Part shown: positions 17,645 through 27,277 of the stretch, in pieces
How positions within the stretch are numbered: position 1 is the stretch's first letter
How the letters are laid out: the number at the start of each line of letters is the position of its first letter
Virus record (IMG/VR): IMGVR_UViG_3300037153_000498
Location: 1-30,653 of that record
Strand: one strand, 5' to 3'
Origin: a virus
DNA length: 30,653 nt
Program-made: the position numbers and the translations under genes
Notes under the pieces: model-generated
What the model saw: the letters and a program-made list of their open reading frames with translations, nothing else
Database searches by the model: none
Told to the model about the DNA's origin: nothing

Positions 17645-17700
17645 CGGTGGCTTCCTTCATCGGGGGAACGAACTGAGGGGCAGCCTACCGACTGGGATGC

Positions 17701-17730
17701 TCACTGGTGCTCACTGGTGCTCACTGGTGC
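17701..17730. repeat. Three tandem 10-bp repeats (operator array 1)
   Basis: TCACTGGTGC occurs three times head to tail (17701, 17711, 17721), preceded by GC so that TGCTCACTGG is also repeated. The 10-bp period places each copy on the same face of the helix. The array covers the expected transcription start of the leftward ParB-like operon. The motif in inverse orientation, AGTGAGCA, forms a second array at 21041-21078. Confidence 0.88.
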
Positions 17731-20887: not shown

Positions 20888-21040
20888 GCCGGGACCTTAC
20901 TACGCACAAGGGCACAAAGGAAACCCCTGGTCAGCGTGTCTTCTGAGCCGAATCTGACGATCCCGGAGCACGCGGCCGGGCACCTTACACCCGGGATATG
21001 GGTGAGCACCAGGGGGTAAAGCTTGGCTTCAGGTGGAATC

Positions 21041-21078
21041 AGTGAGCATCGGTGACCATGAGTGAGCATCAGTGAGCA
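21041..21078. repeat. Four tandem 10-bp repeats (operator array 2)
   Basis: AGTGAGCATC occurs at 21041 and 21061, the partial form AGTGAGCA at 21071 and a diverged GGTGACCATG at 21051, all at 10-bp steps. The core is the reverse complement of TGCTCACT in the array at 17701-17730. Both arrays lie in front of oppositely directed operons, as expected of one shared regulator. Confidence 0.85.
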
Positions 21079-25223: not shown

Positions 25224-25845
25224 CTGGCCAGCCACCGTGGGCACCGGGGTGCACCTATGGCTGGAGGCAGTGTTCGGCGGCACCAGCTTGGACAAGGTGC
25301 CGATGGTGGGGCCCGGCCAGGAACGCTGGGCGGTCGAGACGAAGCTGACCGTGGGTGAAGTCGGCGGGGTTCCGATTCTCGGCACCTGTGACCTGTATGA
25401 CCGGGTGACAGCCACGGTGATCGACCACAAGACCATGGGCAAGACCCGGCTGGCCGACTACACCCGGAAGGGGCCCCCGGAGGTCTACCGGGTCCAGGTC
25501 CAGCTGTACGGGCTGGGCTGGCGCCGGGCAGGCCTGCCGGTGGACACGGTGATGATCAGCTTCCTGCCCCGGGACGGCCAGCTGGACGATGCCTACATCT
25601 GGTGGGAACCGTTCCGGCCGGAGATTGCCCGGCAGGCCCTGGATCGGCTGAACGGGATTAGCCAGCTGGTGCAGACCTTCGGGGTGGCAGCCCTGGGGAT
25701 GTTGCCCACCACCGATGAATGGTGCTTCAGCTGCCCTTACCTCCGGCTGAAGTCAGATGATCTTGGCCGGGGTTGCCCAGGTGACCCCGGAATGTACCAA
25801 CCCAACCTGGGACTAACGATCAAGGAAGGCAGTGGACATGTCTGA
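25012..25845 (+). CDS. Cas4/RecB-type PD-(D/E)XK exonuclease with Fe-S cysteines
   Basis: A 277-aa nuclease. The catalytic motifs are GTCDLYD with Asp127, VIDHK with Asp138 and Lys140, and QLYGLGW with Gln164 and Tyr166. Four cysteines fit an iron-sulfur cluster as in Cas4 and AddB: Cys52 (GGSCSRR), Cys238 and Cys241 (CFSC) and Cys255 (RGC). In phages, such proteins act in recombination by resecting DNA ends together with an annealing partner. The ATG at 25012 is preceded by AAGG and GATC. It overlaps the next gene slightly. No cas1/cas2 is present, so a CRISPR role is unlikely. Confidence 0.85.
   Translation: MTVPTLPPQLMQRGGDPGLVAREYLETIREAIAQAPRSRQLMIGPSSIGGSCSRRLGYQLMQSARRTQPPNWPATVGTGVHLWLEAVFGGTSLDKVPMVGPGQERWAVETKLTVGEVGGVPILGTCDLYDRVTATVIDHKTMGKTRLADYTRKGPPEVYRVQVQLYGLGWRRAGLPVDTVMISFLPRDGQLDDAYIWWEPFRPEIARQALDRLNGISQLVQTFGVAALGMLPTTDEWCFSCPYLRLKSDDLGRGCPGDPGMYQPNLGLTIKEGSGHV
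25818..25840 (+). promoter_or_regulatory. Start-associated sequence, early-operon copy
   Basis: GATCAAGGAAGGCAGTGGA directly precedes the ATG at 25838 and is identical to the stretch before the integrase start. It includes the ribosome binding site AAGGAAGG. Confidence 0.7.
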
Positions 25846-26470
25846 ACGTATCGAGATTGATCAGATCAAGGTCACCAACATCTTGGTGCCGATCATCGGA
25901 ACCAGTCCGTTGATCATGCATAACTGGTCAGAGAAACAGAAGCGGGCCATGCTCCAGGCCCAGCAGGGCAAGCGGGCCATGAAGGATGTTCGGGACCCAG
26001 AGGCCGAATATCAGGCAGCTTTCTACCGAATCGCGCGCGAGGGGCAATCAGATGGCTATGGCTTCCCGGTGACCGGATTTAAGGCTGCCATCGTCGGGGC
26101 TGCCCGGTTCTATGGAAAGTCGATCAAGATGACCGAACTGAAGCAATTTATCTTCATGCGGGGTGTGCTGACAAAGGCTGACCCCCAGCAGCTAGTCGAG
26201 ATTGTCGGCCAGCCAGAAATGCGAGAAGATGTCGTTCGGCTGGGTGGTATGAACCGGTCAGCTGATCTTCGGTATCGGCCGGAATTCAAGCAGTGGAGCG
26301 CCGTGCTGGATGTGACCTTCGTCCAGTCCTCACTGTCTCAAGGATCGGTGCTCTCATTGATCGATGCCGCTGGCCTGGGGGTCGGCGTCGGGGAATGGAG
26401 GCCCGAACGGCGAGGCGAATTCGGGTGCTTCACCATCGATCAATCGAAGGACATCGAGGTTCGAAAGTGA
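25838..26470 (+). CDS. Conserved partner of the Cas4-like nuclease, unknown function
   Basis: A 210-aa protein. It begins with strands that lead into LVPIIGTSPLIMHNWSEK, and later has RDPEAEYQAAFYR, GYGFPVTGFKAAIVGAARFY, ADLRYRPEF and GLGVGVGEWRPERRGEFGCF. The order of these motifs, and the place behind a Cas4-like nuclease, matches a family I recall from actinophages that has no firm function. The shape, with a Gly-rich GVGVGEWRPE loop near the end, is reminiscent of RAMP/Cas7-like folds. A DNA-annealing or binding role in recombination is inferred from the gene pair. The ATG is fixed by the start-associated sequence. Confidence 0.72.
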   Translation: MSERIEIDQIKVTNILVPIIGTSPLIMHNWSEKQKRAMLQAQQGKRAMKDVRDPEAEYQAAFYRIAREGQSDGYGFPVTGFKAAIVGAARFYGKSIKMTELKQFIFMRGVLTKADPQQLVEIVGQPEMREDVVRLGGMNRSADLRYRPEFKQWSAVLDVTFVQSSLSQGSVLSLIDAAGLGVGVGEWRPERRGEFGCFTIDQSKDIEVRK

Positions 26471-26883
26471 ACGCCAGGGAAGCGCTCCGGGACATCTATG
26501 AACGACATGCCCAGCTGACCCCGGCCATCGTGGTCGAGGGAGCCCGGCCGGAGGATGCCCCGCTGCATGATCAATTCGAGTGGGATGATCAAGTAGCGGG
26601 TGAGCGATACCGATTGGTGCAGGCCGGTGACATGATCAGGAAATACAAGATCACCTATGCACACGACAAGGATGGTAGCCCTAGGACCATCCGGGAATGG
26701 GTGTCGGTCAGCCGTCCTGATCAATCCCGGAGCTACATACCGACTGGGGAAGCCGTGATGGACCCATTTACGAAGGAAGCGCTGAAGCGGGAATGCTTGC
26801 GTGAGGCCAGGGCTTTCAAGATCAAATATTCGGCCCTTGACGAGTATGCAGTCATCGTGGCAGGGATGGCCGATACCGGCTAG
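26467..26883 (+). CDS. Conserved phage protein of the recombination block
   Basis: A 138-aa protein starting from GTG (MNAREALRDIYERHAQLTPA) and overlapping the previous stop by GTGA. The segment ARPEDAPLHDQFEWDDQVAG and later AGDMIRKYKITY, EWVSVSRP and ARAFKIKYSAL are characteristic of a small family I recall next to nuclease or annealing genes in actinophages. Function unknown. It is the last gene before the pentamer array, whose start adjoins its stop codon. Confidence 0.7.
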   Translation: MNAREALRDIYERHAQLTPAIVVEGARPEDAPLHDQFEWDDQVAGERYRLVQAGDMIRKYKITYAHDKDGSPRTIREWVSVSRPDQSRSYIPTGEAVMDPFTKEALKRECLREARAFKIKYSALDEYAVIVAGMADTG

Positions 26884-27250
26884 GCAGGTGCGGCGTGGCG
26901 TGGCGGCGGTTCGGCATGGTCGGGTTCGGCCTGGCGCGGCAAGGCAGGCACGGTCAGGTCTGGCCAGGTGTGGCGCGGTCAGGTTCGGCGCGGTTCGGCG
27001 GGGCAAGGCAGGGCAGGCAGGGCAGGGCGCGGCAAGGCAAGGTTCGGCGCGGCTTGGCAAGGCCAGGCTCGGCAGGGCCGGGCAAGGCTCGGCAGGGCCG
27101 GGCAAGGCAAGGCAGGGCAGGCGAGGCCAGGCCAGGCACGGCAAGGCATGGCACGGTGGGGCAGGCATGGTTCGGCAGGGTACGGCGTGGCCAGGCTAGG
27201 CCTGGCAAGGCGAGGCAGAGCAGGGCACGGCGTGGCAGGCAAGGAAAAGG
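26884..27250 (+). repeat. Degenerate pentanucleotide array GGYNN
   Basis: About 70 consecutive five-base units begin with GG, mostly GGC and sometimes GGT, followed by two variable bases (for example GGCAA, GGCAG, GGTTC, GGCGC, GGCCA), with only a few slips in phase. The strand is strongly G-rich. Units 27066-27105 hold an exact tandem duplication of four pentamers. No gene is convincing here: the several open frames on both strands result from the lack of stop words in the repeat. The array ends just before the GGAA repeat and start codon of the putative ssDNA-binding gene. Confidence 0.92.
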
Positions 27251-27256
27251 TCCGAT

Positions 27257-27277
27257 AGGAAGGAAGGAAGGAAGGAA
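27257..27277 (+). promoter_or_regulatory. Extended GGAA-repeat ribosome binding site
   Basis: The tetranucleotide GGAA is repeated five times just upstream of the ATG at 27284. Each unit could pair with the anti-Shine-Dalgarno, giving several overlapping sites. This suggests high or slippage-variable translation of the downstream gene. Confidence 0.7.

What the first reader, a model, noticed from the sequence alone, without database searches (positions are those of the whole stretch)
26884..27250. About 360 bp of degenerate GGYNN pentamers in an intergenic region
A period of five bases is kept for about 70 units with GG and a pyrimidine fixed and the last two positions free. A period of five is incompatible with protein coding, so the constraint acts on DNA or RNA. 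The strand is strongly G-rich with GG every five bases. The array lies between the recombination block and the ssDNA-binding/primase genes. Hypotheses: an R-loop- or G-quadruplex-forming replication start, a helical array for a protein reading GG every half turn, or a structured untranslated leader.
Basis: partly seen in the sequence, partly recalled or inferred. Interest (0 to 1): 0.82.

Follow-up and report, generated by a model that had tools for sequence, protein, structure and literature searches.

The report
Phage VIPR guide-RNA array
The odd stretch of GG-every-five-bases is a set of guide RNAs of a recently described, CRISPR-related phage weapon (VIPR) that phages appear to use to switch off genes of rival phages; this is a new actinophage-like member of that known kind, not an origin of replication.

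Summary
26883-27248 holds 67 GGYNN pentamers plus six 4-base GGCA units, far beyond chance. It is the guide array of a VIPR system (Viral Interference Programmable Repeat; preprint PMC13142463, 2026). The gene two upstream (25838-26470) is a Vipr: it groups with the solved SUSP1 Vipr (PDB 36pp, profile E 3e-22) and its predicted fold matches Cas7/Csm3 RAMP subunits. A conserved partner gene (26467-26883) sits where VIPR accessory genes sit.

Of 41 related Vipr loci from many phyla, 40 carry such an array beside vipr, always on the vipr strand; the exception is cut by a contig end. The array may lie before, between or after the two genes. GGCA units cut it into guide blocks, and near-identical mycobacteriophages differ by whole blocks. 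Over 2133 units the NN pairs look like codon positions 1-2, as the published 1-nt-skip code predicts. One relative's guide matches 16 of 16 bases in nine other vipr genes but not its own.

No target was found for this window's own guides. New member of a known kind.

The parts
25838..26470 (+). vipr gene, 210 aa RAMP (Cas7-like) protein; phrog_4652 (GTG start at 25832 also possible)
   Evidence: Profile of 10 relatives including this protein hits PDB 36pp_D 'SUSP1 Vipr protein', E 3.2e-22; AlphaFold2 model mean pLDDT 88.4, pTM 0.84; Foldseek top hits are Csm3/Cas7 subunits, E from 2.3e-06
26467..26883 (+). probable VIPR accessory gene (vap-like), 138 aa; phrog_15946, function unknown
   Evidence: Family found at 32 Vipr loci including the window; model mean pLDDT 91.7 but no confident fold match in PDB
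26883..27248 (+). GGYNN guide array (vrRNA array): five blocks bounded by six GGCA units; starts on the last base of the vap stop codon
   Evidence: same kind of array at 40 of 41 related Vipr loci
26883..26942 (+). guide block 1 (GGCA, ten pentamers and one 6-base unit)
   Evidence: Segmentation
26943..27011 (+). guide block 2, 13 NN: AC CA CT CA GT GC CA TC GC TC GG AA AG
27012..27115 (+). guide block 3, 20 NN, contains a 20-base tandem duplication (27066-27105)
   Evidence: duplication read directly from the sequence
27116..27159 (+). guide block 4, 8 NN: GA CA CA AC AA AT AC GG
27160..27233 (+). guide block 5, 14 NN: AT TC AG AC GT CA TA CT AA GA AG AG AC GT; its first five NN equal those of the last block of Gordonia phage UmaThurman
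27234..27250 (+). closing GGCA unit and short end of the array
   Evidence: 25 of 40 arrays end within 36 bases of such a unit

Best explanation
This is a phage VIPR locus. The array is transcribed in the direction of vipr and gives guide RNAs (vrRNAs), probably one per GGCA-bounded block. Vipr subunits line up on the RNA, one per pentamer, holding GGY, while the two free bases NN of each unit pair with a double-stranded DNA target that is read as NN, skip one, NN, skip one. The skipped base is usually the codon wobble base. Binding represses genes of competing phages or other mobile elements. Shown here: the Vipr homology and fold, the array anatomy, the fixed linkage and strand, the codon-like NN composition over all relatives, and one relative's guide matching other phages' vipr genes. 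Taken from the preprint on SUSP1 and P. fulva systems: RNA production, RNA binding, DNA recognition, repression. Inferred: one Vipr per pentamer, that this window's system does the same, and what it targets.
For: Vipr homology: (36pp_D). RAMP fold. Array on the vipr strand at 40 of 41 related loci, nothing comparable far from vipr in them and none on the other strand. GGCA blocks of 4+5k bases, most often 8-12 units; the paper gives 9-16 repeats per vrRNA. NN composition fits codon positions 1-2 read forward: log-likelihood -5859 against -6054 for background and -6095 or worse for every other frame and strand, 2133 units. The guide of Sphingomonas soli (L018, 6060) matches 16/16 bases with 1-base skips in the vipr genes of nine other loci, whose wobble bases differ, while its own vipr mismatches. 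Guide turnover: UmaThurman and Pipp share vipr at 88% and the partner at 90% but their arrays are unrelated; Donkeykong and Brocalys have identical vipr and flanks and differ chiefly by two whole blocks, 59+54 bases.
Against: No convincing target for the window guides searched in viral contigs (blocks 2, 4, 5) or, for block 2, in 395 genomes of the class. Window NN composition alone does not settle the reading direction: forward -193.2, reverse -191.5, background -197.1. Outside the S. soli guide, the excess of 1-skip matches among held loci is close to the shuffled background. Block 3 (20 units) and block 4 (8) lie outside the published 9-16. No separate constant 3' tail is seen, unlike SUSP1. 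Expression cannot be tested here.
Confidence: 0.9

Rival explanations
1. The array is a replication start: the G-rich non-template strand forms R-loops or two-tier G-quadruplexes that load the adjacent Prim-Pol.
For: G on one strand, GG every five bases, Prim-Pol gene 0.7 kb downstream.
Against: Arrays follow vipr, not a primase: upstream of vipr in cluster F phages, between vipr and partner in Gordonia phages. In low-GC relatives many units are GTY or GAN, so a G-quadruplex would not form regularly (L020). NN carries codon-like information.
Confidence: 0.03
2. The array is a DNA operator or filament site read in duplex DNA by a protein contacting GG every half turn.
For: Regular spacing; a partner protein of unknown fold is encoded next door.
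Against: Strand is always that of vipr, which a duplex site would not need; Vipr is a RAMP, a fold that binds guide RNA in its known relatives; SUSP1 and P. fulva arrays are expressed as RNAs that co-purify with Vipr.
Confidence: 0.03
3. The array is a structured untranslated leader that regulates the downstream primase operon.
For: The RNA is predicted to fold better than shuffles, z -5.05; it precedes a gene cluster on the same strand.
Against: Position relative to genes is not conserved; blocks are gained and lost whole between near-identical phages. The low folding energy may simply follow from the period.
Confidence: 0.03
4. A neutral microsatellite or expanded simple repeat with no function.
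For: Block 3 contains a 20-base tandem duplication, so slippage or unequal exchange occurs.
Against: GG kept in nearly all units while NN is free; found at 40 of 41 Vipr loci across distant phyla.
Confidence: 0.01

Closest known systems
VIPR systems of phage SUSP1 and a Pseudomonas fulva prophage (PMC13142463; PDB 36pp)
   Same: Vipr RAMP protein, GGY/NN pentamer array beside it, accessory gene, phage-borne; the Vipr of relative phage LESphi2 matches 36pp at E 1.8e-41
   Different: Window array is one continuous run cut by GGCA units, with no separate structured 3' tail; whether its partner gene is one of vap1-6 is unknown. The paper mentions staggered arrays with overlapping vrRNAs, which may be this architecture, but its supplement could not be read
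Class 1 CRISPR-Cas (Cas7/Csm3)
   Same: RAMP fold, by inference protein lined up on guide RNA, several guides in one array
   Different: No identical repeats with spacers, no cas genes noticed beside it, period 5 instead of 6, noncontiguous code
VIPR loci in isolated phages: Gordonia UmaThurman, Pipp, Ecliptus, ODay; Mycobacterium cluster F such as Donkeykong and Brocalys
   Same: Vipr 60-66% identical in the Gordonia phages and 47% in Donkeykong, same partner family, same GGCA-cut arrays
   Different: Gene order (vipr-array-vap in Gordonia, array-vipr-vap in cluster F, vipr-vap-array here) and guide content

Membership tests
VIPR | Vipr protein: RAMP with RRM core and G-loop | tested here: met
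   Profile hit to 36pp_D E 3.2e-22; Foldseek to Csm3/Cas7; conserved GxGxGEWRPxxxGxFG near the C end
VIPR | Array of alternating GGY and hypervariable NN | tested here: met
VIPR | 9-16 repeats per vrRNA | tested here: inconclusive
   Blocks of 11, 13, 20, 8 and 14 units; real RNA ends unknown
VIPR | Accessory vap gene | tested here: inconclusive
VIPR | NN pairs with DNA with a 1-nt skip | tested here: inconclusive
   Supported for the group by codon-like NN and by the S. soli anti-vipr guide; no target for the window's own guides
VIPR | Array transcribed and bound by Vipr | not testable with these tools
   Needs small-RNA sequencing and pull-down
VIPR type I-VII | Type by Vipr phylogeny, array form and vap | not tested
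CRISPR array | Near-identical direct repeats with unique spacers | tested here: not met
   Only degenerate periods 5, 10, 20, 25 with 66-75% matches
Rfam RNA family | Match to a curated RNA family | tested here: not met
   Only one chance-level hit, 14.8 bits against a gathering score of 70

The most novel reading that the evidence does not exclude
The window represents a tail-less, CRISPR-like form of VIPR array: n guide blocks between n+1 GGCA units, where the 4-base unit both breaks the pentamer register and marks guide ends, so that whole guides are gained, lost and exchanged as cassettes between phages. The preprint's staggered arrays may already cover it.
Probability: 0.35. Interest if true: 0.6.

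Novelty: new member of a known kind. Interest (0 to 1): 0.5.

Why it matters
VIPR is a new, minimal RNA-guided DNA recognition system proposed to predate CRISPR. Placing it in isolated Gordonia and Mycobacterium phages with laboratory hosts makes guide processing, targeting and guide turnover directly testable outside the two systems studied so far. The block anatomy gives a simple rule for reading guides from sequence, and two annotated phage 'proteins' appear to be guide arrays.

Tried and rejected
Targets of the window's guides: exact 1-skip patterns for blocks 2, 4 and 5 in viral contigs gave nothing or chance-level hits; blocks 1 and 3 were not scanned there. A lead that block 2 targets a ParB-like gene (22 of 26 bases in L069, in codon frame on the opposite strand) was not borne out: no match in 395 genomes of the class at up to 3 mismatches, and the loci of actinobacterial relatives of that protein match at only 14-16 of 26. 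Block 4 matches 16 of 16 in several unrelated genes, including Acb2-like genes of Pseudomonas-type phages (family named from memory); with 34 hits this is treated as chance. The host could not be named: terminase matches in genomes of the class were at most 39% identical. Guides of two gut relatives gave no convincing target in viral contigs or in 148 family genomes. A match of a Rhizobiales guide (17 of 18) to this window's Prim-Pol gene is expected about 0.3 times by chance over all guides, so it is not claimed. Literature searches for pentamer repeats found nothing until the PDB hit named Vipr.

Full report
Observation. The stretch 26883-27248 is real and far from chance. Self-match at lag 5 is 0.624 against a maximum of 0.406 in 2000 shuffles and 0.428 in 2000 first-order Markov sequences. 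The longest exact GGY chain is 21 units, against 3 elsewhere in the window. Segmentation gives 67 pentamers, six 4-base units (all GGCA) and one 6-base unit. The GGCA units lie at 26883, 26943, 27012, 27116, 27160 and 27234 and cut the array into five blocks of 60, 69, 104, 44 and 74 bases.

Relatives. Blastn of the region against phage records found similar arrays in Gordonia phages UmaThurman, Pipp and Ecliptus and in Mycobacterium cluster F phages. In all of them the array is next to homologs of the two window genes just upstream of the array, but in different orders: vipr-vap-array here, vipr-array-vap in Gordonia phages, array-vipr-vap in cluster F. Tblastn and scans of viral and genome collections brought in Vipr loci from cyanobacterial, Pseudomonas, sphingomonad, rhizobial, clostridial and other sources. 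A detector for GGYNN found an array at 40 of the 41 related Vipr loci (L009-L049) and in the window, always on the vipr strand; the exception, L045, is a contig that ends just after vipr. The same loci contain no comparable stretch elsewhere; other scores stay at the level of shuffles (14 or less) apart from second arrays near vipr. Some of the 41 are near-duplicates (for example L018 and L026, L020 and L021).

Identity. The Vipr-family protein of Pseudomonas phage LESphi2, a relative of the window protein, matches PDB 36pp chain D, 'SUSP1 Vipr protein', at E 1.8e-41, and a profile of ten family members including the window protein matches it at E 3.2e-22. This led to the preprint PMC13142463, which describes VIPR: a phage-borne RAMP protein, Vipr, and vrRNAs of 9-16 YNNGG repeats. 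The NN bases pair with double-stranded DNA with one skipped base between pairs, and natural targets lie mostly in competing phages and satellites. The window protein, modelled with 29 sequences (mean pLDDT 88.4), matches Csm3 and other Cas7-type RAMP subunits in the PDB (best E 2.3e-06, TM about 0.5). The partner gene belongs to a family found at 32 of the loci. It is modelled well (pLDDT 91.7) but has no confident structural match.

Code. Over 2133 pentamers from 34 loci plus the window, NN composition fits codon positions 1-2 of the same loci's genes, read forward (log-likelihood -5859), better than background (-6054) or any other frame and strand. This is what a 1-base skip over the wobble position predicts; other causes of the bias are not fully excluded. 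The clearest single case is the first guide of the Sphingomonas soli locus (L018, 6060): its eight NN match 16 of 16 bases at the conserved EDMVRVGM motif of nine other vipr genes, whose wobble bases differ, while its own vipr has mismatches. A single exact match anywhere in the held DNA has E about 5e-4 for one guide, or about 0.08 over 166 guides; vipr genes make up only about 2% of that DNA. The preprint reports guides against other VIPR systems, so this agrees with it. A Lachnospiraceae guide (L043, 1626) matches 19 of 22 bases in a CI-like repressor of L041 in codon frame, which is suggestive only. Apart from these, matches are near the shuffled background; the raw excess of 1-skip hits is driven by the S. 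soli guide and by contigs that had been fetched with guide patterns.

Turnover. Mycobacteriophages Donkeykong and Brocalys have identical vipr and flanks, and their arrays differ chiefly by two whole blocks of 59 and 54 bases. UmaThurman and Pipp share vipr at 88% and the partner at 90%, with unrelated arrays. Blocks therefore behave as units. Arrays often begin and end with a GGCA-like unit (28 and 25 of 40), a tendency rather than a rule.

Window guides. The NN strings of the four regular blocks are listed. No convincing target was found (see tried and rejected). The host is unknown, so absence of a target is uninformative.

Limits. Transcription, Vipr binding and repression were not tested and rest on the preprint, which has not been peer reviewed in the form read here. 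The supplement (types, staggered arrays, vap sequences) could not be read, so the VIPR type is not assigned and the block anatomy may already be described there.

Noticed in passing
window 1-30653: TGATCA occurs 137 times against 3.3 expected from base composition (41-fold, the most over-represented hexamer), often as TGATCATG (29 times, several at gene junctions) but also inside genes; the related VIPR loci checked lack so strong an enrichment. It may be a host genome signature like HIP1 in cyanobacteria. Counts of paired sites in 297 genomes of the class gave no clear host.
   Followed up: partly
L009 6589-6912 and L010 5982-6368: UmaThurman gene 40 and Donkeykong gene 48 are annotated as hypothetical proteins but their reading frames lie almost wholly in the guide arrays, so they are probably not genes.
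   Followed up: yes
L039 4971-6809: Two vipr genes in a row, each next to its own array; L014, L033, L044 and L046 also carry two arrays.
   Followed up: no
L015 3588-3902: In Pseudomonas phage LESphi2 the pentamer stretches upstream of vipr are separated by sequences that look like hairpins, as expected for vrRNAs with structured tails.
   Followed up: no
window 17698-17730 and 21038-21078: Tandem 10-base repeats TGCTCACTGG and ATCAGTGAGC, sharing the core GCTCACTG on opposite strands, on either side of the integrase region; possible operator sites.
   Followed up: no
window 27164-27188: Block 5 begins with the same five NN (AT TC AG AC GT) as the last block of UmaThurman, with one pyrimidine differing at a fixed position; a shared guide or common origin.
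   Followed up: no
window 27258-27277: GGAA repeated about five times between the array and the next start codon, possibly an unusually long ribosome-binding region.
   Followed up: no
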